From the NCBI GenBank assembly GCA_020403455.1, contig JADBXP010000012.1, positions 1 through 64,000 of the forward strand: a stretch of 64,000 nt of DNA, in the 5' to 3' direction. Made by a program: the position numbers and the translations under genes. The DNA comes from Chitinophagaceae bacterium (lineage in GTDB: Bacteria; Bacteroidota; Bacteroidia; Chitinophagales; Chitinophagaceae). Within the stretch, counting starts at the first letter, position 1, and the number at the start of each line of letters is the position of its first letter. The notes under the pieces were generated by a model that worked only from the letters and a program-made list of their open reading frames with translations, had not been told where the DNA came from and made no database searches. This document shows positions 104 through 21,119 of the stretch, in pieces.

Positions 104-147
104 GCCAGTTTTATTTTAATTTAGTCGGACAATAGTGAAAAAAAATT

Positions 148-943: not shown

Positions 944-964
944 TTAGTTATATTCATGAACGAT
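944..964. promoter_or_regulatory. Degenerate copy of the MarR-type palindromic operator
   Basis: TTAGTTAT-ATTCA-TGAACGAT matches 16 of 21 positions of the strong site at 5832-5852. It lies 13 bp before the MFS start at 978, in the same relative place as the strong copies. If real, it would autoregulate the carrier and the MarR gene. The mismatches are mainly in the right arm, so this is a candidate only. Confidence 0.4.
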
Positions 965-977
965 TAATGTAATCCGT

Positions 978-2213
978 ATGAGAAAATATTATTGCTGGGT
1001 GGTACTTGCTTGTCTTTTTCTAATGTACATGGCAAGCAATGGTATTGTGTTAAATACTTTTAATCTCTATCTGCCTGAGTTTGCCAAGGAGTTCAACGTT
1101 GACATAGGCAAGGCAACAGGGCTGGCTGCTACACTATATTTGGTATTGGCCCTTCCGTTACCATTTGTGGGTAACCTGCTGGAAAAATTTTCCACTAAAA
1201 AAATAATTCTGATAGGTGCATTTGGTGTATCTGCGGGATTATACTATTTGTCTACTGCGACTAGTTTCAAAATGATTCAACTATTTGTTATCGTATATCC
1301 TCTTTTTCTCTGTCTGGTCGGCTTGCTCACAAGTATGTATGTAATCAATAACTGGTTTGTAAAATACAAAGGTATCGCAACCGGAATTTTACTAATGGCA
1401 AGTAGTGTGGGACCCGCAATTTTTGCCCCAATCGTTGGGAAATGGATCAAGACCCTGGGTTGGCAGGCAGCGGTACAAAATCAATTTCTTTTGTGCAGTT
1501 GCCTGATTATATTACCGGCCTTATTGATTTATAGCCATCCCTCCATCATCAATAGTTCTGCTGATGGTATTCCAGGTACTGTTGGCCGCCAGCCGGTGGT
1601 TGATAAGGCTGCCAGCAAGGCATTGTTAAAGAAAGCAGTATTGTCCTTGGACTTTTACCTGGTCGCCCTGATTACTGCAGCACTCTGGTTTTGTATCGGT
1701 GGATTCATTCAGAACCAGCGCAATTATCAGGCAGACCTGCAATTAGACGTGGCAGAAAGCGGAAGGCTGCAGGGTATCTTCTTTCTTTTTGGTCTACTTG
1801 GAAAATTATTGTTCGGTTATCTGGGAGATAAATTCAGCGTAAAAAAAATTATGTTGCTGAGTGTTTTTAATATGTTACTGGGATGTTTGCTCCTCTACTG
1901 GAGTTTACAAGATTCCCGCTGGGTTATACCCTGTGCGGTTATTTTTGGATTGGGTTATAGCGGCACTTTCACGATGATCCAGTTATACATTATTGATCTC
2001 TTTGGTGGGGCTGCTTATGGAACCATACTGGGTCTGTTGTCTTTCATTGATACGCTTTGCGCTTCAATCGGAGTGGCTATGTTGGGCTCGATGCGAAAGA
2101 TGAATGGAAATTATGAAAAAGCATTTCTCATCATGATTGTGCTGACAGTTTTCTCACTGCTGGCAACCTTTTATATTAATCGGCGCGCTCAAAAAGGAGT
2201 TATAGCCCTGTAA
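978..2213 (+). CDS. MFS transporter, monocarboxylate/oxalate-formate-like
   Basis: A 411-residue polytopic protein with about twelve hydrophobic spans in two halves joined by a hydrophilic loop near residues 190-215. The NWF-x-x-x-x-G-x-x-x-G stretch after the fourth span resembles monocarboxylate/oxalate-formate-type MFS members, suggesting an organic acid or related anion as cargo. It sits between the SDR and the MarR regulator, with 12 bp to the latter, so carrier and regulator are probably co-transcribed. It is one of three MFS carriers in the island and is more like the one at 15484 than the one at 27704. The substrate is unknown. Confidence 0.88.
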   Translation: MRKYYCWVVLACLFLMYMASNGIVLNTFNLYLPEFAKEFNVDIGKATGLAATLYLVLALPLPFVGNLLEKFSTKKIILIGAFGVSAGLYYLSTATSFKMIQLFVIVYPLFLCLVGLLTSMYVINNWFVKYKGIATGILLMASSVGPAIFAPIVGKWIKTLGWQAAVQNQFLLCSCLIILPALLIYSHPSIINSSADGIPGTVGRQPVVDKAASKALLKKAVLSLDFYLVALITAALWFCIGGFIQNQRNYQADLQLDVAESGRLQGIFFLFGLLGKLLFGYLGDKFSVKKIMLLSVFNMLLGCLLLYWSLQDSRWVIPCAVIFGLGYSGTFTMIQLYIIDLFGGAAYGTILGLLSFIDTLCASIGVAMLGSMRKMNGNYEKAFLIMIVLTVFSLLATFYINRRAQKGVIAL

Positions 2214-2225
2214 AGAACTGCCAGC

Positions 2226-2693
2226 ATGCTTAAAAAAAATATCAACGCTTCCGTTATTTTTCATTCCATTAAGTTATCGGAAACATGGAAAAAGAATGGT
2301 GATCTCATAACCCAAAAATTTGGTATCACTACCCAACAGTGGTTCATTTTATTGTTACTGGCAAAGGATCCTAATATTTTATATTTTAAACTACATCCAC
2401 ACACCAAGCCGTTGATGGCGAAGGAACTTGCTGAAGCAATGAATGTAAGCCGAGCCAATATCACCAATATGTTGAATGTGCTCATTAGAAAAAAATTGGT
2501 GGTACAAATAAGCGATAAGGAAGATAAAAGAAGAAAGAGACTTTCACTCACCCCGCAGGGTATGCAGCTTGTAGAAAAATTAGAAAAACTTCGATATACC
2601 TATAACAATAGAATGTTGTCTCAGTTTACACTTGAAGAGAAAAGACAGTTCATTCGATTCGTTGACATCTGTCTCCAGCTGATGCATGCATGA
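2226..2693 (+). CDS. MarR-family transcriptional regulator
   Basis: A 155-residue winged-helix protein. An N-terminal dimerisation helix is followed by the helix-turn-helix (about residues 60-90, containing MAKELAEAMNVSRANITNM) and a basic wing (DKEDKRRKRLSLTPQG), the standard MarR layout. Family members are dimers that bind short palindromes and are usually released by a small ligand, often an aromatic or a pathway substrate. It is the only regulator gene in the 28-kb island. The repeated TTAGTTAA-n5-TTAACTAA palindromes upstream of the island's promoters are the right size for a MarR dimer, so I infer that this protein controls them. Binding itself is not shown by the sequence. Confidence 0.93.
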   Translation: MLKKNINASVIFHSIKLSETWKKNGDLITQKFGITTQQWFILLLLAKDPNILYFKLHPHTKPLMAKELAEAMNVSRANITNMLNVLIRKKLVVQISDKEDKRRKRLSLTPQGMQLVEKLEKLRYTYNNRMLSQFTLEEKRQFIRFVDICLQLMHA

Positions 2694-2707
2694 TGTGTGC
2701 ATGTGAA

Positions 2708-3346
2708 TTATCTTCTTTTATATATGATAGGGGTATCATAGGAAGTAAGACGCTGGCCATTTTTTTCCAAAAGTTCCATTACCTGCAAGGTTGTTGAAGT
2801 GAATGTTTCACTTAATGTAAATTTCAGTCCATTTCCCAGATCATTTACAGATACTGTTGAAAAAGTTTTGTTATCAGGATTCCAGGTATAATCTGCCCCC
2901 TGGAATGTTGGGGAAGGGGTTAGTGTGAGAAAATCAAATCGGAGTGATGTATTATCGTTCCGCAATTCCTCCTTTTTATAATTGGTTAATTGGTAGGTGG
3001 TCAGGTGAATGATACCGGAAGGTCGATGAGTAAAGAGGAAGAGATAGGGTTTGCTTTCCATTACTTTCCCTTCGTTGAGATAATAACTTTCCTCCAAAAC
3101 AAAAAATCCATTCAGATCAAGTGGTTTATTCAATACTTTTTCATCTGCAACCCTGTTCACATGAACCGACAAAGGATGTACGATTTTTCCGGCTTTCATT
3201 TCTTCAACCAATTGGTTTGAATTATCGAAATCTCCGGTTATGTATTCCCGAAATTTTTTCAACAGTTTATTACCTGATAGCGGTTGCTGGGCAGATAAGT
3301 TCAAAGCTAACAAGCATGTTGTAGCAATACATACTATGATTTTCAT
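2708..3346 (-). CDS. Exported CpcT/CpeT-like protein
   Basis: A 212-residue protein with a clear signal peptide (cleavage near residues 19-20, after LNLSAQ). The mature part carries features of the CpcT/CpeT fold: a G-x-F-D-N-S-x-Q segment near residue 40, a F-x-V-x-E-x-x-Y segment near residues 80-90, and PYLFLF. In cyanobacteria that beta-barrel family attaches bilins to phycobiliproteins. This organism shows no phycobiliproteins, so here it is probably a lipocalin-like binder of a hydrophobic molecule. It is the last gene of the leftward nitrilase-ALDH operon, 6 bp after the aldehyde dehydrogenase. The family assignment is from pattern only. Confidence 0.6.
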   Translation of the reverse strand: MKIIVCIATTCLLALNLSAQQPLSGNKLLKKFREYITGDFDNSNQLVEEMKAGKIVHPLSVHVNRVADEKVLNKPLDLNGFFVLEESYYLNEGKVMESKPYLFLFTHRPSGIIHLTTYQLTNYKKEELRNDNTSLRFDFLTLTPSPTFQGADYTWNPDNKTFSTVSVNDLGNGLKFTLSETFTSTTLQVMELLEKNGQRLTSYDTPIIYKRR

Positions 3347-3352
3347 ATTTAT

Positions 3353-4774
3353 CTAAGCTTTTCTCTGTAGTTGGATAGTCCAGGGCGAAGGCTCTACGTT
3401 CTCTTTGATGATGAAAACTTTCTGCCTCAAAAACCTTTTCAGGGCTGCTGCTCCCATGCGTGTACCGCCGATACCACTCAATTTGAAAGATGTCTTTTCT
3501 CCCTCATGCATAATGGCGGTCAGTGCAGCATCGTTGATACTGATAGCTCCTCCGGTAACATGCTTCCCCAATTCCATCGCCTCTTCTACACTTCCTGCAA
3601 AAACTGCACCACTGAGTCCATAGACACTATCATTGGCCAAGCGTATGGCTTCCTCCTTGTTACTGAAGGTCATAACAGGTAAAATGGGACCGAAGGTTTC
3701 TTCCTGCATGATTTTCATCGAGTGATTTACATTAACAAGGACCGTTGGGCGACAATAGTATCCTCCATTAATAAGTTCGCAAGACCGACTTCCTGTTAGA
3801 ATTTCCGCTCCTTTTTCCAGGGCATCTTTTAAATGCTCGTCTATGATTTGTACTTGTTTATCAAAAATGATTGGACCTATTTCTCCTTCTTCAATATCTC
3901 GGTCATTTAGCATCAGTTGTGATGCTCTTTCTGTTAATTTGGTGATGAATTCATGGGCAATTTTATCATGCACATAAATTCGCTCGATACTCAGACAGCT
4001 TTGTCCTGCGTTGGCCGTACTTCCCCAGCAGATAGAAGCAGCTGCAATATCCAGATTGGCAGAGGGTAATACGATTGCGGGATCTTTTCCCCCCAGTTCC
4101 AGAAATACAGGAATCATCCGCTCGGCAGCTGCAGCATATACTTTTCGTCCTGTTGCGGTACTACCGGTAAAGCAAATCAGATCTGCTTCCTGTACCAACG
4201 CTGCCCCTGTTGTTCCATCACCTGCAACATAGCGCAGAACTTTTTTTAGTTCGGGCACTTTTGATATACTTCTATTCATTACCTCTATGAAACGGGGAGT
4301 TACTTCACTGGGTTTAACAATCACCGAGCAACCTGCGAGCAGGGCAGGGATGGTATCGATCAGGGATAGTAGTAAAGGGAAGTTCCAGGGAGAAATGACA
4401 CCTACCAAACCATAAGGGACCCAATCTTGTTGTAGTCGAATAAATGGTATTTGCGTTTTCTTAGTTGGGATAGGTTCAAAAAATTCTTCTGCGTGCTTAC
4501 ACCAGCGGTCTATGCTGCTGAACAGGAGGTCGATTTCGAGTTTGGTTTCCCAACTTCTTCCTGTATCCTGTTGAAGTGCTTCCAGTAAAGCGGTTTTTTC
4601 CTGCTGAAGCACTAATTTCCATTCTTGTAAAACTGCTGATCTGGCTGTTAATCCATTTTCATTCCAGTCGGGTTGGGCAGATCTAGCCTGCGAGCACAAA
4701 GCAGCAAGTTCTTCCGCCGGCATGGCGGAGAAAAAATAATCCTTTTCTCCGGTTCTTGGATTTCTGGTATTCAA
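3353..4774 (-). CDS. NAD(P)-dependent aldehyde dehydrogenase
   Basis: A 473-residue aldehyde dehydrogenase with the full active site: PWNFP (129-133), Lys154 in the cofactor pocket, FTGS (202-205), the general base Glu227 in LELGGK, nucleophile Cys260 in NAGQSC, and the E-T-F-G-P motif near residue 357. It oxidises an aldehyde to the acid. The length and the lack of a CoA-type signature fit the non-acylating ALDH class, nearest in style to class 3-like enzymes. It lies 8 bp downstream of the nitrilase-fold gene and 6 bp upstream of the CpcT-like gene, in an operon whose promoter overlaps the palindrome at 5832-5852. It probably handles an aldehyde released in the pathway. Confidence 0.93.
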   Translation of the reverse strand: MNTRNPRTGEKDYFFSAMPAEELAALCSQARSAQPDWNENGLTARSAVLQEWKLVLQQEKTALLEALQQDTGRSWETKLEIDLLFSSIDRWCKHAEEFFEPIPTKKTQIPFIRLQQDWVPYGLVGVISPWNFPLLLSLIDTIPALLAGCSVIVKPSEVTPRFIEVMNRSISKVPELKKVLRYVAGDGTTGAALVQEADLICFTGSTATGRKVYAAAAERMIPVFLELGGKDPAIVLPSANLDIAAASICWGSTANAGQSCLSIERIYVHDKIAHEFITKLTERASQLMLNDRDIEEGEIGPIIFDKQVQIIDEHLKDALEKGAEILTGSRSCELINGGYYCRPTVLVNVNHSMKIMQEETFGPILPVMTFSNKEEAIRLANDSVYGLSGAVFAGSVEEAMELGKHVTGGAISINDAALTAIMHEGEKTSFKLSGIGGTRMGAAALKRFLRQKVFIIKENVEPSPWTIQLQRKA

Positions 4775-4782
4775 TTGTTGAC

Positions 4783-5817
4783 TTATTGGATGATCTTTTT
4801 CTCTTTCAACGTTGCAATAACATTTTGTTGTTGCTGTATGTAGTGACTGCGGGAGGGATTTTTTCCCTGCAATGAATTTGCAGGATAGATCGATTGGGCG
4901 TAAGTAGGTGCAAACAATTCAAATCTTTGACGTGAAAGATAATTGCTCATTCCGGGGCGCATACGATGTTCCCGCAAGGCACCAAGATGAATTGTAGCAT
5001 TGGCAACCATGCTCTCTCCAAATCCGGCTTCACATAGCACCATGCCCTCATATTGTACAATCTGAGAATGTCCGTCGGTAGATTGAGCAGGAATTGAATA
5101 TCCGGTAATACCGGCACTGTTTGCACTGATAACGTACGCCATGTTTTCTATGGCGCGGGCCCGTTTAGCAATATTCTTGGGTGTAGGGGATAGTGCACCA
5201 ACTTCGGAGGTGTGGTGCAGAAAAATCTCTGCTCCTTTGAGTGCGAGGCAACGTGCTATTTCCGGATAGAGAATTTCTTCTGAAGCGAGGCAGGCCAGAT
5301 TTCCCAATGGGGTATTAGCAACGGGGAACAAACTGTCAACACCATACACAGAAATGTATTCATCCAATACATCATGTGGTGTGGCCGCATACATTGAATT
5401 CAGTCGTCGATAGCGGATAAGTATATTTCCTCCGGGTCCAATGATGAAGGAAGTTTGGAAGAAGAGTTGTTGGAAGTGATCATCCAGTTCATAAACGTTA
5501 CCACTTAAATAGATGTTACAGTCCTCTGCCAGGTGTTTCAATGCTCCATAAATCTCATCATTGGGATGAATGCACCCTTTTTCCTGCCATTCTGCTGTTG
5601 TTTCCCCCATAGGAAAACCGGTTAAAAAATATTCAGGAAGTACTACCAATTGGAGGTCACTGCCAATGAATGCTTTAGATGCCTTGATTTGTGCATGAAT
5701 CCGGCTGACAGCAGCCAGCATTTGATTCCTGGATTCATGACTGGAAGTACAGGAATTCACAGAAGCTGTCGTAAGCTGCAGTGCAAGTGCTTTATAAGAA
5801 GTGAGATGGGTTGCCAT
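4783..5817 (-). CDS. Nitrilase-superfamily protein lacking the catalytic Lys and Cys
   Basis: A 344-residue carbon-nitrogen-hydrolase fold. The first catalytic position is kept (Glu62 in LPEYF). The lysine expected in Y-R-K-x-H is replaced in YRRLN (Arg138), and the nucleophilic cysteine expected just before the E/D-x-x-x-P-E segment is replaced by Ser179 (LACLASEE); the neighbouring Cys176 is three residues too early. I checked the codons for this stretch on the reverse strand. It heads a leftward operon with an aldehyde dehydrogenase. Its ATG is 14 bp from the operator at 5832-5852. It may be a non-hydrolytic binder or use a changed mechanism. Confidence 0.88.
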   Translation of the reverse strand: MATHLTSYKALALQLTTASVNSCTSSHESRNQMLAAVSRIHAQIKASKAFIGSDLQLVVLPEYFLTGFPMGETTAEWQEKGCIHPNDEIYGALKHLAEDCNIYLSGNVYELDDHFQQLFFQTSFIIGPGGNILIRYRRLNSMYAATPHDVLDEYISVYGVDSLFPVANTPLGNLACLASEEILYPEIARCLALKGAEIFLHHTSEVGALSPTPKNIAKRARAIENMAYVISANSAGITGYSIPAQSTDGHSQIVQYEGMVLCEAGFGESMVANATIHLGALREHRMRPGMSNYLSRQRFELFAPTYAQSIYPANSLQGKNPSRSHYIQQQQNVIATLKEKKIIQ

Positions 5818-5831
5818 GAGTTGGTTTAAAA

Positions 5832-5852
5832 TTAGTTAACTTCATTAACTAA
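5832..5852. promoter_or_regulatory. Palindromic operator, probably for the MarR regulator (site 1)
   Basis: TTAGTTAA (5832-5839), spacer CTTCA, TTAACTAA (5845-5852): a perfect 8-bp inverted repeat with a 5-bp spacer. It sits in the 66-bp gap between the divergent nitrilase-fold gene (14 bp away) and FAD oxidoreductase gene (31 bp away), so one bound dimer could control both. Near-identical copies occur at 8171, 14181 and 16764. Confidence 0.82.
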
Positions 5853-5883
5853 ATCGGTTTTTCATTCCTCTAATTTACTATTT

Positions 5884-7314
5884 GTGGATGATATTCTCAT
5901 CATAGGAGCAGGTGCAGCCGGTATGACTTCGGCCATCAGGGCTGCTCAAAGAGGCAAAAAAGTAACGGTCCTGGAAAAAATGGACAAGGTAGGTGGTACT
6001 TTATCACTTACTGCAGGTCATTTGAGCGGTGCTGCAACACAAAGACAATTGTATGCGGGTATTCAGGATACAACCGACAGTCATTACAATGATATTGTTC
6101 GAATTTGTAGGGATACCATGGATCCAATCATTGCCCGTAAGGCAGTCGATCTTGCTTCCTCCACCATAGATTGGTTGACAGAATTGGGATATCCTTTTCA
6201 CGACAGAGCACCTGCGGTTATTTACGGGCATGAAGCCTATTCAATAGCACGAACTTATTTTGGAAAAGAGGATGTTCATCCGCGAATGCAGGAACCCGGT
6301 CAAACTATTTTGCGGTTGTTAATGCCTTTATGGAATGAGCAGGTGCAAAATGGGAATATACGTTTGATCACCGGGTGTAAACTAAAGCAGATCCTTGTAG
6401 ATAAGAATTCAGTAGTGGGAATTGTAGCAGAACAAGATGACCGGGAATTTACTTTCACAGCACATCATTATTTACTGACCACAGGTGGTTATGCTTCCAA
6501 TCCCTCCTTCTTTAACACCTCTTCTCCCGGAACTTCACGGTGGATGTCTGCTGCCAATCCTGCTTCCACTGGTGATGGAATCAAAGCTGCACTTCAAATA
6601 GGGGCTGTATTTCAGGGTGCGGATAAGCAAATGTTTACGCTTGGTGGTATTGAGCTTCAGCCGGGAAGTGGCAGAGTCAATTTCTGGGAAGCATGGGCAA
6701 GGATGAGCAATGGCATTGATAGAAAGCAACGGGAGATTTATGTCAATATGCTGGGTGAGCGTTTCATGAATGAATACGATTGGTCAGTTGATCAGCGAGA
6801 GCGTGCCATGTTGGCTCAGCCCGGGAAAAAATGCTGGATTTTATTTGACCAGCGTGCATTGTATGATGGGGATTCCTTGGTGCCTCAATGGACAACTGAT
6901 CAACTGGTACAAGAAAGTTATCGGGAGCAAGCCGTATGGCAGGCTGCATCTCTGCGTGAGTTGGCAATGAAAACGGGCTTGCCGCTAGAAGCTTTGGAGG
7001 CGACAGTTGCAAAATACAATGCGGATTGTGCCTTGGGAGCTGATTCTTTGTGGGGAAGGACATACCTGGAACACCCATTGGCTAGTCCGCCTTATTTTGC
7101 TGTGTTGGTCTATGCCTATGCCTTGATAAGTTTTGGTGGATTACAAGTGAATGAGCAGTTACAAGTTGTGCGGGCGGAAGGACAAACGATTGATAATTTA
7201 TATGCTGCAGGTGAAATTCTGGGGGCTGCAGCAACCAGTGGCCAGGCATTTTGTGGTGGCATGTTGCTAACCCCGGCAATCAGTTTTGGGAAATGGCTGG
7301 GCGATCATCTGTAA
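5884..7314 (+). CDS. FAD-dependent oxidoreductase, fumarate-reductase/ketosteroid-dehydrogenase type
   Basis: A 476-residue flavoprotein. The N-terminal dinucleotide motif I-I-G-A-G-A-A-G-M begins at residue 6, followed by an acidic residue in VLEK. The C-terminal FAD segment (NLYAAGEILGA, then CGGMLLTPAISFG) is typical of the fumarate reductase/succinate dehydrogenase flavoprotein superfamily, which includes 3-ketosteroid delta-1 dehydrogenases and 2-enoate reductases. It probably reduces or introduces a C=C bond next to a carbonyl. Translation must start at the GTG at 5884, since the next ATG lies inside the FAD motif. It is a single-gene unit, convergent with the hydrolase-fold gene 7 bp away, and driven from operator site 1. 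Confidence 0.9.
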   Translation: MDDILIIGAGAAGMTSAIRAAQRGKKVTVLEKMDKVGGTLSLTAGHLSGAATQRQLYAGIQDTTDSHYNDIVRICRDTMDPIIARKAVDLASSTIDWLTELGYPFHDRAPAVIYGHEAYSIARTYFGKEDVHPRMQEPGQTILRLLMPLWNEQVQNGNIRLITGCKLKQILVDKNSVVGIVAEQDDREFTFTAHHYLLTTGGYASNPSFFNTSSPGTSRWMSAANPASTGDGIKAALQIGAVFQGADKQMFTLGGIELQPGSGRVNFWEAWARMSNGIDRKQREIYVNMLGERFMNEYDWSVDQRERAMLAQPGKKCWILFDQRALYDGDSLVPQWTTDQLVQESYREQAVWQAASLRELAMKTGLPLEALEATVAKYNADCALGADSLWGRTYLEHPLASPPYFAVLVYAYALISFGGLQVNEQLQVVRAEGQTIDNLYAAGEILGAAATSGQAFCGGMLLTPAISFGKWLGDHL

Positions 7315-7321
7315 GCGGAAC

Positions 7322-8158
7322 CTATTGAGTAGAATTGAGCGTTGAGAAAATTGTCTGTTGCATTACCTGCCATCTTGCTTTTGGTTCTGCAGGAGTTGTA
7401 ACGACCCGTATTTGTTCAGGTAAAGGATGTTGAATTAGCTGATCAATATAAGGAAGTAGGGGGCTTCCCAGCCATCTGAACACAATTGCAGGTATGGTAA
7501 GTTGTTGAACATGCTCTGCTTTTTCATGTAGAAAAGCAGCACGGTAAGCCCTCGCATAATCGGGTCCCGCTATAATGTAATCCTCCATCATTTTTTCTAT
7601 AATTTCAGCCGGGGGAAGTTTGTCGGAAAATCGATGTTTTTCATCGGTACTGAACCAGGGAAAGAACAAACAACTTTTTTCTACCATCTCGCGCAGACGG
7701 GTCAGTTCAGTGCCATCTTTTTCCGGATGCAACGAGATGAAATAGTGCTGTAAAATCTGCTTTCTCATGTCTTCCTCAAAATGCGCGGCATTGTCCAAAA
7801 ACAATTGTTCAACCCTTTGGGGGTAGGCCAGTGCGTAGGCAATGGCTAACTGAGCGCCTGTAGCGGTTCCATATAAATAGAAGGTATTGCTGCCCAGTTC
7901 CTCTCTGAGGGCTTCGATAAATGGGCAATAGTCGCTTATTTTTTCTGCTGCCGGGCTGAAGGGATCTGAATATCCATATCCGGGTGTATCGGGAGCCACT
8001 ACATGAAATCGTTCTGACAGCAAAGAAATCAATCCTTCCATCCTTCCTGAATGTTGGGGGGAGGGATGCAAGAGCATCAATAATGGGCCGTTGCCACAAC
8101 TTCTGTAAAAAAGTTGTCCCCCGGCATAGCGGAGATGATTTTTTTGGATGGTGGGCAT
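7322..8158 (-). CDS. Alpha/beta-hydrolase-fold protein without Ser-His catalytic residues
   Basis: A 278-residue alpha/beta-hydrolase. The oxyanion strand (LLMLHPSP, 26-33), the D-T-P-G-Y-G-x-S motif (57-64) and the nucleophile elbow are recognisable, and the closest style is meta-cleavage-product or haloalkane-type hydrolases. The elbow reads G-T-A-T-G (97-101), putting Ala at position 99 where Ser, Cys or Asp is expected; the codon GCT was checked on the reverse strand. The C-terminal segment where the catalytic His normally follows the last strand (TTPAEPKARW) has no His. It is therefore unlikely to be an ordinary esterase. It is transcribed leftward from operator site 2, 12 bp upstream. 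Confidence 0.88.
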   Translation of the reverse strand: MPTIQKNHLRYAGGQLFYRSCGNGPLLMLLHPSPQHSGRMEGLISLLSERFHVVAPDTPGYGYSDPFSPAAEKISDYCPFIEALREELGSNTFYLYGTATGAQLAIAYALAYPQRVEQLFLDNAAHFEEDMRKQILQHYFISLHPEKDGTELTRLREMVEKSCLFFPWFSTDEKHRFSDKLPPAEIIEKMMEDYIIAGPDYARAYRAAFLHEKAEHVQQLTIPAIVFRWLGSPLLPYIDQLIQHPLPEQIRVVTTPAEPKARWQVMQQTIFSTLNSTQ

Positions 8159-8170
8159 ACAACGGTAAAA

Positions 8171-8191
8171 ATAGTTAACTTCATTAACTAA
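8171..8191. promoter_or_regulatory. Palindromic operator, probably for the MarR regulator (site 2)
   Basis: ATAGTTAA (8171-8178), spacer CTTCA, TTAACTAA (8184-8191). One arm mismatch relative to site 1; the spacer is identical. It fills the 43-bp gap between divergent genes at 8158 and 8202, leaving 12 and 10 bp on either side. Confidence 0.82.
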
Positions 8192-8201
8192 TCATTGCTG
8201 C

Positions 8202-9206: not shown

Positions 9207-10321
9207 AGATGCAGAAATTTTTCTTGAGTTGGTTACTGGTGGGATTTTTTTTCACCAGCAGGGCACAGGATAGCATTCCGGCTACTGGTATCAGTGGGGT
9301 ATATGAAGTGGTTGTGGGAACAAATCAGGCATCTGCCGCAATACAATATTTTGGTGAGTTTGGTTTTCAGGTAGTAGATAGTGCCCGATTAACTGCTGTT
9401 CAAGCCGCATCCCTTTACCAGGTACCTGTAGCCGCCAGAGTATATCGGCTTCAGAATGGCAAAATAGATTCACACGGGTTGCTGCGTATCATTGAATGGG
9501 AGCGTCTGCTGGGACCCGGGGTGGGGTATGCTGTGCCTGAAACAGTAGGACAACGGTTAAGTGTGATGCTAACAAAAGACATCATTCGGCTCACCGATAT
9601 ATATCAGTTGCTTCGCACAAAGCAAGAGAAATGGTTGCCAACAGTTCCGGTTTTCGATGATCCGTTGCGCATTAATTCCGGAACAGAAACCGGATTTTAC
9701 AAGCGTCCTGTAGGGGTGAGGGAAAATGCAGTGTATGGGGAATTTTTTAACCATGTGTTTTTTCAACGGTATGGATATACCATACCTGGCTATGGAACAA
9801 TAGACCCGGCTACTCCTTTACAAACCAGTGAGTTTACCCACCATGATTTCTGCATAAAAGTAGACAGCATGCGACAACTGATGTACCTGCAAACAGCTTT
9901 CGGATTAAAAGCGGAGCGGCTACCGGTGGTAGATGGAGATAATAACAAAGGGCCAAAGGCGACCTTCTTGATGCCTGACGGTTACTCCCACTATTATCAG
10001 GGCTTTGTTAGTCCGAATAATATTTGTGGCAAGCTAAAATTTTTTATGGCTGTAAGAGGCGATAAACCGGATGCTTCAGCGCGACAGCGACTGGGTGAGC
10101 CGGGTATTACCATGCATACTTTTTACACACCCCGGTTGCAGTTGATACATGAATTGGTGAAGCGGCATGGACTGCAACCGACCACTATAACTACCAATGA
10201 ATTTGGTGAACTTAGCTTTGTGGTGCGTGGACCGGAGGGTGCAACCTGGCAACTCATAGATAAAAAAAGAACCAACCACCAACCAGTAACAATTTTATCT
10301 ACTCAATTTACCAAAGATTAA
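9203..10321 (+). CDS. Exported two-domain VOC/glyoxalase-like protein
   Basis: A 372-residue protein with a signal peptide (hydrophobic core 5-19, cleavage after about residue 21, TSRAQD). The mature part resembles two vicinal-oxygen-chelate units: the first begins with YEVVVGTNQASAAIQYF (about 34-50) and the second with HHDFCIKVDS (about 213-222). VOC proteins are metal-dependent isomerases, dioxygenases and lyases, or binders; most are cytosolic, so an exported one is unusual. Its ATG overlaps the stop of the upstream reductase, and DUF1838 follows 11 bp later, so the three are co-expressed. Whether metal ligands are complete cannot be judged without an alignment. Confidence 0.72.
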   Translation: MKMQKFFLSWLLVGFFFTSRAQDSIPATGISGVYEVVVGTNQASAAIQYFGEFGFQVVDSARLTAVQAASLYQVPVAARVYRLQNGKIDSHGLLRIIEWERLLGPGVGYAVPETVGQRLSVMLTKDIIRLTDIYQLLRTKQEKWLPTVPVFDDPLRINSGTETGFYKRPVGVRENAVYGEFFNHVFFQRYGYTIPGYGTIDPATPLQTSEFTHHDFCIKVDSMRQLMYLQTAFGLKAERLPVVDGDNNKGPKATFLMPDGYSHYYQGFVSPNNICGKLKFFMAVRGDKPDASARQRLGEPGITMHTFYTPRLQLIHELVKRHGLQPTTITTNEFGELSFVVRGPEGATWQLIDKKRTNHQPVTILSTQFTKD

Positions 10322-10332
10322 ATCCCAACCAC

Positions 10333-11202
10333 ATGAAACAATTATTTGGATGCTTATGCTCTTTTTTGCTGCTTCATTCAGCAATATGGGCTCAGAACAA
10401 ATCAGGTTACAATCTAGAAGATGCCCGCGACAATATGGATGCCTACATGAAAGTGAGAGGTTCACTTTCGCCTACAGACGAGGTTGTTTTTTATGCTAAA
10501 GGGGCCATTTATGCCTATGACCCTGAAAAACCATGGAAGCATCTTTTCAATTTTGAGATGTACAATATTGCACGCAGTGAGAAACTTCCTGGTGATAGCG
10601 GATGGCGGTTGATTACACGCGAGATGCTGGTGTACCAAGATCCCAAGACCAATGAAATAATTTCTAGCTGGAAAAATCCATGGACCGGTGAAGAGGTAGA
10701 AGTGATGCATGTTTGGAATGATCCCGTGAACCAGCAGTTTAAATATGGTTCTTTTAAAGTGCCTTATCAGCGCATGGGAAGTGACAGGTTAGGCATGTTC
10801 AACGATGTGCCGCTTTCTTATCCTTCCCCCCTCAAAAAATCTGAATGGCCAGACAACACCCGCAGTGATGTGTACCAGGGTGCTGAGCTTTTCAACTTTT
10901 TTTGTAGTGAAAAAGAGCTCAACAATAAAAAAATTGTCAATGCCACTGCAGACGTATCCTGGACAAGATTCAGTGATTTTCTTCCTTGGATGAAAATGAG
11001 TAGCAGGCCTGGTAACTTATTGTACCAGGGCAGAGGGTATAAATTGAAGAATGGATATGCGGATCTGCCTGAAAAAATTAAATCTTTTGTCGAAAGCAAT
11101 TTCCCTGAATACGCACATGCTCCTGCTACCTACACATCTCCCAATATGACCAGCTGGAAATATTACAAGAAGGTAATGGAAGAGAGAAAGAAAAAAGGGT
11201 AA
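10333..11202 (+). CDS. Exported DUF1838-family protein
   Basis: A 289-residue protein with a signal peptide (cleavage near IWAQN, residue 21). The body matches the DUF1838 pattern: NLEDARDNMDAYMKVRGSL at the start of the domain, then aromatic-rich strands with NPWTGEEVEVMHVWNDPV around residues 115-132. The family has no established function that I know of; I recall members lying in degradation clusters of other bacteria. It is the last gene of the reductase-VOC-DUF1838 operon, followed by a strong hairpin terminator at 11221. Confidence 0.8.
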   Translation: MKQLFGCLCSFLLLHSAIWAQNKSGYNLEDARDNMDAYMKVRGSLSPTDEVVFYAKGAIYAYDPEKPWKHLFNFEMYNIARSEKLPGDSGWRLITREMLVYQDPKTNEIISSWKNPWTGEEVEVMHVWNDPVNQQFKYGSFKVPYQRMGSDRLGMFNDVPLSYPSPLKKSEWPDNTRSDVYQGAELFNFFCSEKELNNKKIVNATADVSWTRFSDFLPWMKMSSRPGNLLYQGRGYKLKNGYADLPEKIKSFVESNFPEYAHAPATYTSPNMTSWKYYKKVMEERKKKG

Positions 11203-11220
11203 GCAATTACTCAACAAAAA

Positions 11221-11253
11221 AAATACCCCTGGATTTCCAGGGGTATTTTTTTT
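11221..11253. terminator. Bidirectional rho-independent terminator
   Basis: AAATACCCCTGG (11221-11232), loop ATTT, CCAGGGGTATTT (11237-11248), flanked by an A-run on the left and a T-run on the right. It lies between the convergent DUF1838 gene (ends 11202) and TonB receptor gene (ends 11273) and can stop both. Confidence 0.92.
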
Positions 11254-11272
11254 GGGGTATTGTGTTCTACAA

Positions 11273-14152
11273 TTAAAAGTCAAATGAAATATAAGCTATC
11301 CATCTTCTGGGTAATTGTAAATAGCCTTGTGACCAGATAGCTACACCATTGTTAACGAAGTTAGGTGTGGTTTGTAACTGTCCCATAGCGGTAGAGTTTT
11401 CTTGCAGACCTGCAATTTGCTGAACACCCTGGCGGTTGCCGATGTTCTTACACTGCAGACCTACTCTGAATTCTTTCTTGCCACCGATGCCTACGCGAAC
11501 GTAACCACCCGCATTTAAAACAGTCATTTTACCTAAGTCAATCAGGTTGGTAGCATCTGCGTAACGTGTTCCTACTGCATTAGCAGAGAAGTCAAGACCA
11601 AACCATTTACCCTGATAAAGGGCCACTGTATTCCAGATATAGTCGGGTACATTGGGCAGACGGTTACCTACCACGTCTATCGATGTTTGTCCGCTACCTT
11701 CGTTGATTACCTTCAATCCGAACAGATTACCGTTCACGTCAACGTCTGGCAGATTAGATTGTTTGCCAATGATACCGCCGGATACTGCGTTGGATATTTT
11801 GAAATTGGTGAAGGTGGCTTTCTGAAGAGTCACACTGCTTCTAACACTTAATCCGCGAAGGAACCCGGTGGGAGCCCACGACAAAGAAATTTCAGAACCC
11901 ATGATTCTGTTGGAACCGAAAGGTTTAGAAACCAGTAGACCGTTTTCAAAAATAGATGCCAGCCTGTTCTTGATGGTGTTGTGATAGAAGGAGAAGTCGA
12001 AACCGAAGTCTCCTGCTTGTCCTTTGAATCCACCCTCGAATGAAGTGATGATCTCATTGCCGGATAATCCATCTGGCAAGCGCAACAACCTGCTGGCAGT
12101 GGCGTTGTTGGCTGTTGGACCAACATACTCCAATGATGTGAAGGCGGTATAGTCTGGCATGCGGTATGCACGGTTGGCGTTGGCATAAATGGCAGCGTTT
12201 CTGCTAAACATATAATTCAGACCAAATGAAACGGAATAGTCACCAAACTCAAGTATACGGGTAATGGCACTGTCGAATGGAGCTTTGGTTTCCCGCAGAT
12301 CCATATTCAGCCAGTCGTAACGGGCACCCACATTGATGGTGAGTTTATCATTGAATTTGATTTCATGTCCGGCAAAGAGTGCATTCACCTGCTCGTTGTA
12401 GCGACCGCGGCGGGTAATGGAGCCTCTTTGTGGGTTAGCAGTTGCGTTGGCAATTGTTATATTCAAAGGAATAGTGGCAACAGGTGATACTGCCAGTCTG
12501 CCCGGAATTACACCATTGATCATCTGCAGATTGAATGGATCTGAAGGATTCACAAAATGTGAATAGCTATAAGTAGTCGGCTTCAGGTTAGTATTAGAGA
12601 AATAATAACCAATCTGAAAGGTTTGACGTTTTCCATTACCGTTGTTCCATGTCTTTTTTAATCTCAATTCATTCATGAAATCATCATCATAGGCATCTCC
12701 ATCCAACATCAGTCTGAATGCACCACCTGAAGATGAATAGAGGGTGCCTGGTGCAAAGGTGGAGGGAAGCACTGCTGAAGAATACAGTCCATTGCTATTA
12801 TAGAAGGAAGGAATGGAGAATGGATATTTAGTACCGCTGTAAAGACTCTGGAAGCGGAATTTATTTTCTATTGTCCAGTTTCTTTTAAGGTTCCTCTCAA
12901 AAGAGAAATTCAGTTGGAGATTTCTGGAGGTATTGTTGTCTCTCAACTGTTGGTCAATATTGCGGGTGATTTGTTGTCCGGTTACAGGATCTACAACAGG
13001 AATGCCACCCGGGCGGGGCAGCGTAGCGCTGCTGCGTGTTCCGAATACGGAATAATTCTGACTTGCAAATCCCGGGAAGATGAAGGTGTGAATGTTCTGC
13101 CAGTTACCGGGTAATTTCTTGGTAACCGGATCAAGGGGAACATCTGTCAGGTTCTGGAAGCTGTAATTGCCATAGATAAATCCAAGGCGAATTTTTCCCT
13201 TACCATCTGCGTTGAGGAAATCAAAGTTTCCTCTTAATTGATAACCTTGGTCATTGTAGCCGGTTTTTCTGAATCCGCGATCATCAATGGTCCATCCGCC
13301 AATGTTGTAGCGAACTAACTTATCTTTTGATAAAGAGCCGTTCACGTTCCAGTCGATGCGATAGTTGAGGTAGTTGTTATCGGTGTGAATGTTATCATAG
13401 CGGCTGAATTTGAAAGAGCCGTGGGTTTCCTCACCTCCGGTCTTACTGATGATATTTACAACACCTGCTGCAGCAGAACGACCGTAAACAGTTGCTGTGC
13501 TACCACGAACAACCTCTACTTTTTCAACGTTGTCATCGAAGCCAAAACCTGCATCGGGCAGGCGGCCGGCGCTACCAAAGGCAGGCAGACCATCGATCAG
13601 TATGCTGGTATATACCAGACCGCCCAATGGGTTGCCATCGGGAAAGCCCCGAATTACAATCCCTCCTCTTCTACCCTGGGAGTTATTGGCAAATACACCG
13701 GGTGTAAGCGTTACGGCTTCAGCAAAGCTTTCGGGCTTAATAGATTTAAGTACTTTGTTGCTAATGATATCAACTGCTTGGGTGGCTTCAATCTTTCGCA
13801 CCGGCTGTCGGCCTGCAGTTACACTCACTTCATTCAGTTGGTTGATCTCTTCTTCCAGCCAAACCTCAACCGATGTTCGGTTATTCAGGTCAATTTGCTG
13901 GGAACGATGGTTCACCGCGCTGATAACAAGGCGGGCATTGGCGGAGGATACCCGAATGGAAAACTGTCCGTTTTTGTCGGTTGTTACACCGGTTTTGGTA
14001 CCTTTTTCCTGTACGGAGGCGCCATCCAGGGCGGCTTTGGTTTCTTTATCTACTACCTTTCCAGAAATAGTTACCTGTGCATAAGCGGCAGGCAGAACCA
14101 ACAGAAAGCAGATGAATAAACCAAGTGCTCTTTTCAGCATGTTCAGATGCAT
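11273..14152 (-). CDS. TonB-dependent outer-membrane receptor with CarboxypepD-regulatory-like domain
   Basis: A 959-residue receptor. A signal peptide (cleavage near AAYAQ, residue 25-26) leads to a carboxypeptidase-regulatory-like domain (about 27-110, VTISGKVVDKETKAALDGA), a plug domain (about 120-235, with VEVVRGS and YGRSAAAGVVNIISK) and a 22-strand-type beta-barrel ending in phenylalanine. No SusD partner is nearby, so it is not a classical polysaccharide system; the architecture fits uptake of a small organic compound or a chelate. It is monocistronic, transcribed leftward 28 bp from operator site 3, and is probably the outer-membrane entry step for the island's substrate. Confidence 0.95.
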   Translation of the reverse strand: MHLNMLKRALGLFICFLLVLPAAYAQVTISGKVVDKETKAALDGASVQEKGTKTGVTTDKNGQFSIRVSSANARLVISAVNHRSQQIDLNNRTSVEVWLEEEINQLNEVSVTAGRQPVRKIEATQAVDIISNKVLKSIKPESFAEAVTLTPGVFANNSQGRRGGIVIRGFPDGNPLGGLVYTSILIDGLPAFGSAGRLPDAGFGFDDNVEKVEVVRGSTATVYGRSAAAGVVNIISKTGGEETHGSFKFSRYDNIHTDNNYLNYRIDWNVNGSLSKDKLVRYNIGGWTIDDRGFRKTGYNDQGYQLRGNFDFLNADGKGKIRLGFIYGNYSFQNLTDVPLDPVTKKLPGNWQNIHTFIFPGFASQNYSVFGTRSSATLPRPGGIPVVDPVTGQQITRNIDQQLRDNNTSRNLQLNFSFERNLKRNWTIENKFRFQSLYSGTKYPFSIPSFYNSNGLYSSAVLPSTFAPGTLYSSSGGAFRLMLDGDAYDDDFMNELRLKKTWNNGNGKRQTFQIGYYFSNTNLKPTTYSYSHFVNPSDPFNLQMINGVIPGRLAVSPVATIPLNITIANATANPQRGSITRRGRYNEQVNALFAGHEIKFNDKLTINVGARYDWLNMDLRETKAPFDSAITRILEFGDYSVSFGLNYMFSRNAAIYANANRAYRMPDYTAFTSLEYVGPTANNATASRLLRLPDGLSGNEIITSFEGGFKGQAGDFGFDFSFYHNTIKNRLASIFENGLLVSKPFGSNRIMGSEISLSWAPTGFLRGLSVRSSVTLQKATFTNFKISNAVSGGIIGKQSNLPDVDVNGNLFGLKVINEGSGQTSIDVVGNRLPNVPDYIWNTVALYQGKWFGLDFSANAVGTRYADATNLIDLGKMTVLNAGGYVRVGIGGKKEFRVGLQCKNIGNRQGVQQIAGLQENSTAMGQLQTTPNFVNNGVAIWSQGYLQLPRRWIAYISFDF

Positions 14153-14180
14153 AAAAATAGTTTTTGGTGGAAGATGAATA

Positions 14181-14201
14181 ATAGTTAACTACATTAACTA
14201 A
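14181..14201. promoter_or_regulatory. Palindromic operator, probably for the MarR regulator (site 3)
   Basis: ATAGTTAA (14181-14188), spacer CTACA, TTAACTAA (14194-14201). It lies 28 bp before the TonB receptor start and 221 bp before the reductase at 14423, so its nearer target is the receptor. The spacer differs from sites 1 and 2 by one base. Confidence 0.82.
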
Positions 14202-14422
14202 TCTGAAAAATACTGAATTATCATCGATTAAACAATTATTCAGTCACTTTTTTCCATCCGGAGTTCCTAAAATCCTTATTTTACAATCATTTAGAGGTCT
14301 TTCATTCTACCGATTTCCCGGCCTGTATATTGGTGATTCCCGTAATTATTTCTTCTGCAGGAAGGTTGAAATCGAATAGGTTGAATACTTCATCATCCAA
14401 TCATTTCCCCAATTTTTAAAAA

Positions 14423-15475
14423 ATGCACGAAGCCCACATACAGTCCAACTTGCCGCACTCGATGCAACAGTGGGTGTTGAGAGAACGTCCTGTGCATCAG
14501 GTGGAGGAGCGTCATTTTGAACTTCTGGAAGCTCCGCTTCCTGTTCCGGGTGATGGGCAGGTTTTAGTGAAGGTATTGTTCCTGGGACTAGCACCTGTTA
14601 TGCTGCGATACATGCGCAACGAAACCAGTTTCGAGCGACCACTGGCTTTGGGTGATGTTATGCATGGAAGAGGAGTTGGTAGAGTAATACAGAGTAATCA
14701 TCCGGGGTACCAAATTGGGGATATTATTCAGGCGAAAATGGGATGGAGAGAATATGCATTGATTGATGGCAATGACCCGTATTATCTCATCTATAAAATG
14801 AATCACACTGACCTCCCTTTATCGCATGGCATAAGTAGTCTCGCGATGAGTGGGTTTACTGCACTGATAGGTATGCGCGATATAGGATTAGTAAAATCCG
14901 GGGACAGGGTTTTGGTATCCGGAGCTGCAGGAGGTGTAGGCAGTCAGTGTGCTTTTATTGCCAAAGCATTAGATGCAGGTAAAGTTGTTGGTCTAGCTGG
15001 AGGTCCGGAAAAATGTAACTACCTGGTAACTAAAATGGGTTATGACATGGCGATCGATTATAAGCAGGAAAGTATGCTTGCGGAACTCGATCGGCAATTT
15101 CCGGATGGCATTGATGTTTTCTTTGACAATGTGGGAGGAAAGCTGCTCGATGATGTACTGGCGCGTATCAGAAGAAAGGCGCGAATAGTTATTTGTGGAA
15201 GGATTTCTGAGTATTTGCTAGATCCCTCGCAGTACCATGCTTACAAAAATATTCATCGGATTGGATTACAGGATGCTAAAATGGAAGCTTTTTTTGTTTA
15301 TGATTATACTGCACACTTCAAGGAGTATGAAACTACGCTTGCGCAATGGATCAGACAAGGCCGGCTTCATACTTCTGAGCACATACTCCAAGGGATCGAG
15401 CAGATGCCCAGGGCTTTGATGAATCTCTATGAAGGTGTTAATGTTGGTGTAATGATGGTACAAGTAGCCGAATAA
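14423..15475 (+). CDS. Zinc-free MDR oxidoreductase, second enone/alkenal reductase
   Basis: A 350-residue protein of the same class as the one at 8202: V-L-V-S-G-A-A-G-G-V-G-S nucleotide-binding segment near residue 165 and VFFDNVGG near 235. Starts at 14423 or at the ATG at 14462 (MQQWVLRERP) are both possible; the latter aligns better with the usual family N-terminus. It is 8 bp upstream of an MFS gene and probably co-transcribed with it. Two divergent copies in one regulon suggest two distinct unsaturated intermediates. A 270-bp gap separates it from the TonB gene and holds operator site 3; nothing else stands out there. Confidence 0.9.
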   Translation: MHEAHIQSNLPHSMQQWVLRERPVHQVEERHFELLEAPLPVPGDGQVLVKVLFLGLAPVMLRYMRNETSFERPLALGDVMHGRGVGRVIQSNHPGYQIGDIIQAKMGWREYALIDGNDPYYLIYKMNHTDLPLSHGISSLAMSGFTALIGMRDIGLVKSGDRVLVSGAAGGVGSQCAFIAKALDAGKVVGLAGGPEKCNYLVTKMGYDMAIDYKQESMLAELDRQFPDGIDVFFDNVGGKLLDDVLARIRRKARIVICGRISEYLLDPSQYHAYKNIHRIGLQDAKMEAFFVYDYTAHFKEYETTLAQWIRQGRLHTSEHILQGIEQMPRALMNLYEGVNVGVMMVQVAE

Positions 15476-15483
15476 AAAATGTT

Positions 15484-16734
15484 ATGATGAATAATTGGAA
15501 GAAGTTTTTACCCTGGATAATGGTTGTACTTGCCTTATTGACTATTACGATCAATAGTGGCATAAGTGCTTCTATTACTTCCATCTTCGACACTTTTCTT
15601 AAAGACACCTTTCAAATTGATAACAAACATTTACACCTGCTCAAATGGCGCGATGCTATCAGTGATCTGTCTGCAGCAATATTCGTTTTTCTTGCCGGGG
15701 TAATGATCGATCGGCTTGGCCCCAAGCGGGTCATTCTCTTTGGCACCATCATTTTATGCTTGGCTTATTTCCTATATAGTAAAACAACCAACATCTACCA
15801 GGTATATGGTGTTCACATTCTTTTGGCTGTTGCATTGGTGACATCAGGAAGCATTCCCAACATTATTTTGGTATCTTCCTGGTTTCAGCGAAACAGAGGT
15901 CTCGCTCTGGGAATTATACTAACAGGTACCAGTCTGGGAGGTTTTATCGCTACTAAGTCCCCATTGCTCGCTTATATCGAATCGAATGGATGGCGAGCGG
16001 CGATGCAACTGCTGGCTGTTTTGCCTTTTTTGCTGGCCATACTGGTGATTCTGGTTATGCGCAATAAGCCTACATCGAATGGAGAAACGAAAGAGAATTC
16101 AACCCCTACAAGACAGGGTAGTCAATCTGCTGACGGAATGGAATTTAGTGCTGCTATCCGAACCCCCCTCTTTATCCTACTTTGCCTCTGCTCCTTCTGC
16201 GTTTTTTATAGCATTGTTGCCATGATCAAGAATACGGTGTTATATGTTACAGAAGCGGGGTATCCGCTGACCATGGCAGTTAACTGGCTTGGCACTTATT
16301 TTTTGTTTTCCATTATAGGTAAATTCATCTTTTCTTTTATAGCTGATTATGTCAGTGCATTTTATATGTATGCCCTCTGCTGTATCCTGATGTTTGTAGG
16401 GTCATTGGGATTCAGTTTTGCTTCTGTCGCACAGTTAGACTATCTGATGCCGATAATGGCTATGGGGTGGGGTGGTATTTATAGTATTGGTAATTTACTC
16501 ATCATGCGCAACTTCGGAACACGCGCCGCAGGAAAGATCAATGGAACCATCAGTATTGTACAATCAGCCGGACTTGCTCTGGGACCAATCCTGACAGCTT
16601 ACCTTCACGATGCTTTTTCCTATGCTACCGGATTTAAAGTGGTGAGTATCTTGTTGCTGCTGGCATGTATTTTGTCTACCCGACTGGTCCGACATGCTAT
16701 TCCTGCCACCAACGCATCAACAGAGAAATTCTGA
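15484..16734 (+). CDS. MFS transporter, monocarboxylate/oxalate-formate-like
   Basis: A 416-residue protein with about twelve membrane spans and a central hydrophilic loop (about 197-220, rich in Asn, Glu, Thr). The motif MIDRLGPKRVILFG after span 2 is the canonical MFS loop, and SSWFQRNRGLALGI resembles the NWF motif of the carrier at 978, placing both in the same broad subgroup. It follows the second reductase by 8 bp and precedes operator site 4. Its direction and cargo are not deducible. Confidence 0.88.
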   Translation: MMNNWKKFLPWIMVVLALLTITINSGISASITSIFDTFLKDTFQIDNKHLHLLKWRDAISDLSAAIFVFLAGVMIDRLGPKRVILFGTIILCLAYFLYSKTTNIYQVYGVHILLAVALVTSGSIPNIILVSSWFQRNRGLALGIILTGTSLGGFIATKSPLLAYIESNGWRAAMQLLAVLPFLLAILVILVMRNKPTSNGETKENSTPTRQGSQSADGMEFSAAIRTPLFILLCLCSFCVFYSIVAMIKNTVLYVTEAGYPLTMAVNWLGTYFLFSIIGKFIFSFIADYVSAFYMYALCCILMFVGSLGFSFASVAQLDYLMPIMAMGWGGIYSIGNLLIMRNFGTRAAGKINGTISIVQSAGLALGPILTAYLHDAFSYATGFKVVSILLLLACILSTRLVRHAIPATNASTEKF

Positions 16735-16759
16735 ACTAAATTAAATTTGACCCCTTCGA

Positions 16760-16788
16760 AAAATTAGTTAACTTTATTAACTAATTTT
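16760..16788. promoter_or_regulatory. Palindromic operator, probably for the MarR regulator (site 4)
   Basis: Core TTAGTTAA (16764-16771), spacer CTTTA, TTAACTAA (16777-16784). Symmetry extends to 12-bp arms over 16760-16788, making this the most perfect copy. It ends 14 bp before the first gene of the twelve-gene operon. A sequence matching the Bacteroidota minus-7 box pattern TAnnTTTG (TAAATTTG, 16742-16749) lies just upstream, so a bound repressor would cover the likely start region; that promoter call is tentative. Confidence 0.85.
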
Positions 16789-17291: not shown

Positions 17292-17326
17292 TTGGGTTTA
17301 ATTATTTTAAAATTAAGTAGCAGATT

Positions 17327-21115: not shown

Positions 21116-21119
21116 TTGT

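What the first reader, a model, noticed from the sequence alone, without database searches (positions are those of the whole stretch)
944..16788. A repeated palindrome (TTAGTTAA-n5-TTAACTAA) marks the promoters of one island
Four near-identical 21-bp palindromes lie 10 to 31 bp from start codons at 5832, 8171, 14181 and 16764, with a weaker copy at 944. Between them they cover the nitrilase/ALDH operon, the FAD enzyme, the hydrolase-fold gene, the reductase operon, the TonB receptor, the twelve-gene operon and the regulator's own operon. The island encodes one MarR protein, and MarR dimers bind palindromes of about this size. Together they define a regulon from sequence alone. I saw no other copy in the 29-64 kb part.
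Basis: partly seen in the sequence, partly recalled or inferred. Interest (0 to 1): 0.75.

Follow-up and report, generated by a model that had tools for sequence, protein, structure and literature searches.

The report
MarR-type operator of a catabolic island
Near-identical 21-base palindromes sit just before the start codons of most operons of one large gene cluster and recur at operon starts of the same cluster in nine related genomes; they are likely the binding sites through which the cluster's own MarR-type regulator is predicted to switch what looks like an unstudied breakdown pathway on and off.

Summary
Four palindromes (5832, 8171, 14181, 16764) match TTAGTTAA-n5-TTAACTAA with 0-1 mismatch; shuffles give 0.43 at up to 3. 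The 3.14 Mb genome has five copies at up to 1 mismatch: these four and one on contig C15. The C15 copy is a divergent promoter that relatives keep in the same cluster, so it is probably the island's left part, cut off at an insertion-sequence-like end. The 944 copy is weak: -0.3 bits against >30.

Relatives repeat the pattern. In island stretches of 12 genomes, 40 of 40 sites (up to 2 mismatches) lie at an island gene start, in 10 of the 12; shuffles give about 0.55. Five further fetched sites lie at unrelated genes. Sites track new operon starts.

Best reading: operator of a local MarR repressor lying on the promoters. Binding, repression, ligand and substrate are untested. Against it: several more distant genomes with this MarR and island genes lack the palindrome. 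A new member of a known kind.

The parts
5832..5852 (.). strong palindrome between nitrilase-family gene and FAD enzyme (divergent)
   Evidence: 0 mismatches; same place in G353, G354, G355, G357, G359 and G364
8171..8191 (.). strong palindrome between alpha/beta-hydrolase gene and PTGR1 reductase operon (divergent)
   Evidence: 1 mismatch; same place in G353, G354, G357, G358, G359, G361 and G369
14181..14201 (.). strong palindrome 28 bp before the TonB receptor gene, 221 bp before PTGR2
   Evidence: 1 mismatch; a site before the TonB gene also in G353, G357, G358 and G361
16764..16784 (.). strong palindrome 18 bp before the 13-gene operon
   Evidence: 0 mismatches; a site before the DUF3598 gene also in G353, G357, G358, G364 and G369
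944..964 (.). weak candidate site 13 bp before the MFSa-marR genes
   Evidence: 4 mismatches; -0.3 bits; the MFSa site is strong in G355 and G359 (24.2 bits), 13.0 in G354, weak in G353 and G357, absent in G356, G358, G361 and G364
2226..2693 (+). MarR-family regulator, the proposed reader of the palindrome
   Evidence: Pfam MarR_2 42.6 bits, cut-off 27; AlphaFold2 model pLDDT 89.7 with MarR-fold matches
978..2213 (+). MFS transporter, same direction and 12 bp before marR
   Evidence: Pfam MFS_1
148..924 (+). SDR dehydrogenase; in relatives the gene after DHPase
   Evidence: Pfam; synteny
2708..5817 (-). three-gene operon: nitrilase-family hydrolase, aldehyde dehydrogenase, unknown gene
   Evidence: Pfam CN_hydrolase and Aldedh; third gene without a match
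5884..7314 (+). FAD-dependent oxidoreductase
   Evidence: Pfam FAD_binding_2; best NCBIfam flavocytochrome c, below cut-off
7322..8158 (-). alpha/beta hydrolase
   Evidence: Pfam Abhydrolase_1
8202..11202 (+). reductase operon: PTGR1 (ADH_N_2), unknown gene, DUF1838 gene
11273..14152 (-). TonB-dependent receptor
14423..16734 (+). PTGR2 reductase and MFSb transporter; absent between the two sites in G357
16803..28927 (+). 13-gene operon: DUF3598, aconitase-family large and small subunits, HpcH/HpaI aldolase, HapK-like, SDR, hydantoinase A, unknown, hydantoinase B, methyltransferase, unknown, SnoaL-like, MFS
   Evidence: gaps -23 to 43 bp
1..132 (.). end of an insertion-sequence-like element (TTTAGTCGGACAA) at the contig start, where the island is cut from contig C15

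Best explanation
The 21-bp palindrome is the likely operator of the island's own MarR-family protein, which is predicted to sit on it as a dimer and block the promoters of nearly the whole catabolic cluster until a pathway compound releases it. Shown by sequence: the five strong copies in this genome, their place a few bases before start codons, often between two divergent genes, and their conservation at island gene starts in nine relatives. Inferred: the protein that binds, repression rather than activation, and a ligand from the pathway. The two GTTAA/TTAAC half-sites are centred 10 bp apart, one helical turn, which suits a MarR dimer (sequence plus general knowledge). Because the palindrome ends 4 to 31 bp before 7 of the 8 start codons next to it, it would have to overlap the core promoter or the very start of the transcript. 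Autoregulation in relatives would run through the HMGL-type operon, which ends in MFSa-marR; in this genome an insertion-sequence-like end separates the two parts.
For: Genome scan: all 5 copies at up to 1 mismatch lie in the island (with the C15 part assigned by synteny in L022 and L026). Loci fetched by MarR alone (L022-L041): 21 sites at up to 2 mismatches in 10 of 20 loci, 20 of the 21 at an island gene start, in 9 of 20 loci. Island stretches of 12 genomes: 40 of 40 sites have their nearest island gene start at -8 to 39 bp (starts extrapolated from tblastn), about 0.55 expected from shuffles, 2 for the reversed pattern. At up to 1 mismatch every copy in G353 (4 of 4), G357 (5 of 5) and G359 (4 of 4) is on the marR contig. 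Sites appear at new operon starts: before hydA in G354 and G359, HydA|HMGL in G364, AcnL1 in G369, VOC9203 in G358, and on contigs apart from marR in G358 and G364. Palindrome identity 0.98 against 0.55-0.62 in flanks (n=6) and 0.90 against 0.37-0.56 (n=8) (sites were selected for matching). Island marker gene and MarR co-occur: all 6 marker-positive genomes of 248 are among the 8 MarR-positive ones. 0 of 7 other same-genus genomes have the MarR or a strong copy. No extra ORF of 100 aa or more lies inside the island stretches L022, L030, L086, L089.
Against: No binding or expression data. MarR-positive genomes with island genes but without the palindrome near them exist: G322 and G327 (scan), L037, and G384, G403 and G495 (no copy up to 2 mismatches in G403 and G495; the four in G384 are not on the marR contig). 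L031 (20 kb, MarR 65%) has none. G641 has the marker gene but no MarR match. In the order sample the strong copies of MarR-positive G288 (2) and G293 (1) are not on the contigs that hold marR, and the two of G288 lie at unrelated genes. The genome has 4 other MarR_2 matches, 2 of them over the cut-off. Unknown genes of the island without a Pfam match could in principle be regulators.
Confidence: 0.8

Rival explanations
1. The palindrome is a real operator, but it is read by a regulator encoded elsewhere in the genome, and MarR controls only its own neighbours.
For: Palindrome absent in several genomes that have this MarR and island genes; other MarR_2 proteins exist in the genome; the site before marR itself is weak.
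Against: MarR is the only recognised regulator among the window's island genes and marR lies in or beside the cluster in the relatives that carry the sites; weaker but similar palindromes also precede MFSa-marR in more distant loci L015/L035 and L017.
Confidence: 0.13
2. MarR reads the palindrome but acts mainly as an activator, or as both, instead of as a simple repressor.
For: Some MarR-family proteins activate; HpaR is described as both repressor and activator (title and abstract of PMC7180172 seen in the listing).
Against: Sites lie 4-31 bp from start codons on either side, where a bound dimer would cover the promoter or transcript start; activators normally bind further upstream (general knowledge).
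Confidence: 0.1
3. The palindrome works as an RNA hairpin in the 5' leaders.
For: The arms pair in predicted RNA folds; 2 of 4 tested stretches fold better than most shuffles (z -3.56 and -2.43; the other two -0.20 and -1.47).
Against: It serves both divergent genes at once and the start codon may follow after 4 bp; the outermost bases often change on one side only (ATAG...CTAA), which breaks the pair.
Confidence: 0.03
4. AT-rich promoter sequence that looks palindromic by chance.
For: Raw counts of this pattern in whole genomes are no higher than for the reversed pattern.
Against: 40 sites against about 0.55 expected in island stretches, each at an island gene start, also in loci of 50-57% G+C (L030, L027).
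Confidence: 0.01

Closest known systems
MepR of Staphylococcus aureus (MarR family)
   Different: MepR controls a drug efflux operon, not a catabolic cluster; half-site differs in the last base; other MarR structures have slightly higher Z (17.3).
HpaR and other MarR repressors of catabolic operons
   Same: MarR protein encoded within a catabolic cluster with predicted operators at its promoters; NCBIfam HpaR is among the best matches (40.3 bits).
   Different: Far below the HpaR cut-off of 121.2; none of the enzymes scanned was placed above cut-off in the homoprotocatechuate pathway.
BilQ, bilirubin utilization regulator (NCBIfam NF045593)
   Same: Best NCBIfam match of the MarR protein (40.8 bits).
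   Different: Cut-off is 125, so it is not a member; bilirubin genes were not looked for.
PchR/YvmB of Bacillus subtilis
   Same: MarR-like repressor with a 14-bp inverted-repeat box at several promoters and autorepression (passages of PMC4992311).
   Different: Box GTTYMMYMGTAAAC, different spacing and sequence; different pathway.

Membership tests
MarR family of transcription regulators | winged-helix MarR domain above curated cut-off | tested here: met
   PF12802 42.6 bits (cut-off 27), PF01047 32.5 (cut-off 24.6)
MarR family of transcription regulators | MarR fold | tested here: met
MarR family of transcription regulators | homodimer | not testable with these tools
   only a monomer was predicted
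MarR family of transcription regulators | binds a palindrome at its target promoters | tested here: inconclusive
   conserved palindrome at island promoters, but no binding data and several MarR-positive genomes without it
MarR family of transcription regulators | autoregulation (usual, not obligatory) | tested here: inconclusive
   strong site before MFSa-marR in G355 and G359, weak at 944 in the window; in other relatives through the HMGL-type operon
HpaR (TIGR02337) | curated score cut-off 121.2 | tested here: not met
   40.3 bits
BilQ (NF045593) | curated score cut-off 125 | tested here: not met
   40.8 bits

The most novel reading that the evidence does not exclude
One MarR protein and one 21-bp operator govern a complete, undescribed pathway of about 36 genes for nitrogen-ring compounds (cyclic imides or lactams, for example maleimides from tetrapyrrole breakdown): an allantoinase/hydantoinase-like hydrolase and a caprolactamase-like hydantoinase A/B pair open the rings, a nitrilase-family enzyme removes the amide, two LeuCD/DmdAB-like hydratases, a CaiB CoA-transferase and HMGL- and HpaI-type lyases cut the resulting dicarboxylic acids. 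The operator itself carries the promoter: its asymmetric centre supplies the -7 element of one gene and its edge that of the divergent gene, so one dimer closes both.
Probability: 0.15. Interest if true: 0.65.

Novelty: new member of a known kind. Interest (0 to 1): 0.4.

Why it matters
It ties some 31 genes in 8 operons of one uncharacterised cluster to one operator and names the likely regulator, so that the cluster can be attacked as a unit: one gel-shift and one ligand screen would tell which compound the pathway handles. It also gives a concrete operator sequence for a MarR subfamily of Chitinophagaceae-type bacteria; my paper searches showed no description of it, but the held library is partial and only 12 of the 70 papers found were listed.

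Tried and rejected
Chance and AT-richness: rejected by position and conservation, although raw genome counts do not exceed the reversed pattern.

944 as a full site: not accepted. Its best-in-70-bp score is reached by 0.85% of 2000 mononucleotide shuffles, which is suggestive, but the score is far below the true sites and the same place is weak in the closest relatives G353 and G357.

Other weak candidates: the two-mismatch places C17:75 and C28:4254 hold the same AT-rich sequence near contig ends. Fetched sites without island genes, L096, L102, L103, L104 and L105, lie at unrelated genes or far from starts; they were left out of the 40.

RNA hairpin: only two of four stretches fold better than most shuffles.

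Recognition helix: an alignment of 24 MarR sequences (two cut short) did not separate genomes with and without the palindrome by the recognition helix alone.

Promoter overlap: TAnnTTT, part of the -7 element TANNTTTG (PMC6847099, passages), begins at palindrome position 19 in 22 of 63 gene-oriented flanks and at position 6 in 7 of 63. The TA at position 19 comes from the palindrome itself, the flanks are related, and no control was run, so this stays a hint. The same paper reports leaders of more than 10 nt for 87% of predicted transcripts in Flavobacterium johnsoniae, which fits badly with a -7 element at position 19 in front of the nearest start codons.

Pathway naming: none of the enzymes got a specific equivalog name above cut-off; the only NCBIfam matches above cut-off are subfamily models (HMG-CoA lyase, homoaconitase/isopropylmalate dehydratase family). 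A paper search for dimethylmaleate/maleimide degradation found nothing.
Full report
Observation. The palindrome TTAGTTAA-n5-TTAACTAA is present at 5832, 8171, 14181 and 16764 with 0, 1, 1 and 0 mismatches; at up to 3 mismatches there are only these four in the window, against 0.43 expected. A matrix trained on 35 sites of nine relatives scores the four at 30.7-31.5 bits, the C15 copy at 30.7, the best background match of the window at 4.9 and the 944 copy at -0.3.

Whole genome. The genome has 3.14 Mb in 39 contigs and the window is the start of contig C4. At up to 1 mismatch there are five copies: the four and C15:53057-53077. At two mismatches there are two more and at three 21 more; the reversed pattern gives 125 at up to three and 3 at up to one, so the count alone proves little. 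In 248 genomes of the order sample, 24 have any copy at up to 1 mismatch; the own genome has five, the 23 others one or two each, and the seven other same-genus genomes none.

The fifth copy. It lies between an HMG-CoA-lyase-like gene (4 bp away) and a divergent gene whose first ATG lies inside the palindrome. The HMGL operon goes on with aconitase-family large and small subunits, a CaiB-type CoA-transferase and an allantoinase/hydantoinase-like enzyme. In relatives L022 and L026 that last gene is followed, after about 20 bp, by the SDR gene with which the window begins, then MFSa and marR. In the window's genome C15 ends 131 bp after, and C4 begins just before, matching inverted ends TTGTCCGACTAAA/TTTAGTCGGACAA. 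The left-end pattern occurs exactly four times in the genome, three of them 115-135 bp from a known contig end; the length of the fourth contig, C3, was not seen. So the window's island is most likely one cluster with the C15 part, split by an insertion-sequence-like element; the join itself is inferred.

Extent. Eight of ten operon units carry a strong site within 31 bp of a start codon or, for the gene divergent to HMGL, overlapping it: 31 of 36 genes. Not covered are SDR-MFSa-marR (weak 944 site) and PTGR2-MFSb (221 bp from the 14181 site). In G357 PTGR2-MFSb is missing and the two flanking sites lie in one gap before the TonB and DUF3598 genes, so that pair looks like a later insert or a loss.

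Relatives. A scan with the MarR alignment gave 24 loci, of which L022-L041 (20) are relatives of 37-86% identity. Ten of the 20 carry a site at up to 2 mismatches, 21 sites in all, and 20 of them, in nine loci, are at an island gene start; the exception is in L036. With further stretches, many chosen because they held a site, 12 genomes were compared: 40 sites in 10 genomes, each at an island gene start, about 0.55 expected from shuffles and 2 for the reversed pattern; G356 (5.8 kb held) and G362 (20 kb) have none. Five more sites in fetched stretches without island genes were excluded. In whole genomes of the 20 loci 17 hold a copy at up to 2 mismatches, but the reversed pattern is commoner in 17 of the 20; at up to 1 mismatch every copy in G353, G357 and G359 is on the marR contig.

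Sites follow operon starts. An extra site precedes hydA inside the long operon in G354 and G359; HydA and HMGL share a site in G364; AcnL1 has its own in G369; VOC9203 takes the place of the FAD enzyme in G358; and the ABhyd|PTGR1 site in G358 and the Nitril|FADox site in G364 lie on contigs apart from marR. Within aligned intergenic stretches the palindrome is 98% identical against 55-62% for flanks (n=6) and 90% against 37-56% (n=8); since sites were chosen by matching, this overstates the contrast somewhat.

Who reads it. MarR is the only regulator recognised among 28 window genes scanned with Pfam; six of the nine C15 genes were scanned with NCBIfam and none is a regulator, three were not scanned. 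In island stretches L022, L030, L086 and L089 no extra ORF of 100 aa or more was found. An island marker, the methyltransferase gene, is found in 6 of 248 order genomes, all six among the eight with this MarR, and in five more genomes of a phylum sample of 395, of which three have a strong MarR match, one a partial one (4e-11) and one none. MarR and marker are on one contig in G384 and G403, on different contigs in G495.

Limits. More distant MarR proteins (about 40-48%) go with variant or missing palindromes: AAAGTTAACCTCGTTAACTTT before MFSa in G249, a two-mismatch site before PTGR1 in G288, a four-mismatch one before MFSa in G293, and none in G322, G327, L037, G065, G145 and G285. G403 and G495 have no copy at up to 2 mismatches and G384 none on the marR contig. 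Either the operator has drifted with the protein or another factor reads it; the protein alignment did not decide.

Mechanism. The protein is a typical MarR by domain, model and fold comparison. Its best solved relative by sequence is MepR, which passages describe as self-repressing and as reading GTTAG in major and minor grooves. In the palindrome the GTTAA and TTAAC half-sites are centred 10 bp apart. Start codons follow after 4-31 bp, so a bound dimer would cover the promoter or transcript start of both divergent genes. In 22 of 63 flanks a TAnnTTT, most of the Bacteroidetes -7 element, overlaps the gene-side edge; no control was run and it implies very short leaders. Repression, release by a pathway compound and the substrate are inferred. 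The gene set (ring-opening hydrolases, amide hydrolase, two isopropylmalate-dehydratase-like enzymes, CoA-transferase, two lyases) suggests breakdown of a nitrogen-ring compound to dicarboxylic acids, which is a guess from enzyme classes.

Names such as VOC, DUF1080, phytanoyl-CoA dioxygenase-like and PTGR for island genes are working labels, partly recalled, where no call gave a family name.

Noticed in passing
window 1-147 and L005 15313-15461: Insertion-sequence-like inverted ends, with TGAAAAAAAAT on both outer sides, cut the island between the hydantoinase-like gene and the SDR gene; marR may thereby be uncoupled from the HMGL promoter.
   Followed up: partly
window 11215-11255: A G+C-rich inverted repeat with runs of A and T on either side between the convergent DUF1838 and TonB genes looks like a two-way terminator.
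   Followed up: no
L038 10001-10450 and 15064-15504: This Saprospiraceae locus holds two MarR relatives (45% and 46%) within 6 kb, in one island with palindromes.
   Followed up: no
L029, L032, L039 around 9000-10460: A related MarR (58-64%) sits behind an SDR gene alone; L039 has AAAGTTAACTTCATTAACCAA 112 bp before that gene, so a smaller regulon with a similar operator may exist.
   Followed up: partly
G310:C39 (L126) and G697:C205 (L132): The methyltransferase gene matches read through in-frame stops (2 TAA; 1 TAG), so these copies may be decayed.
   Followed up: no
L119 and L122, gap between the DUF3598 and TonB genes: In G322 and G327 this gap holds TTAACTCAGTTAA, the same half-sites in the opposite arrangement; it may be the drifted operator.
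   Followed up: no
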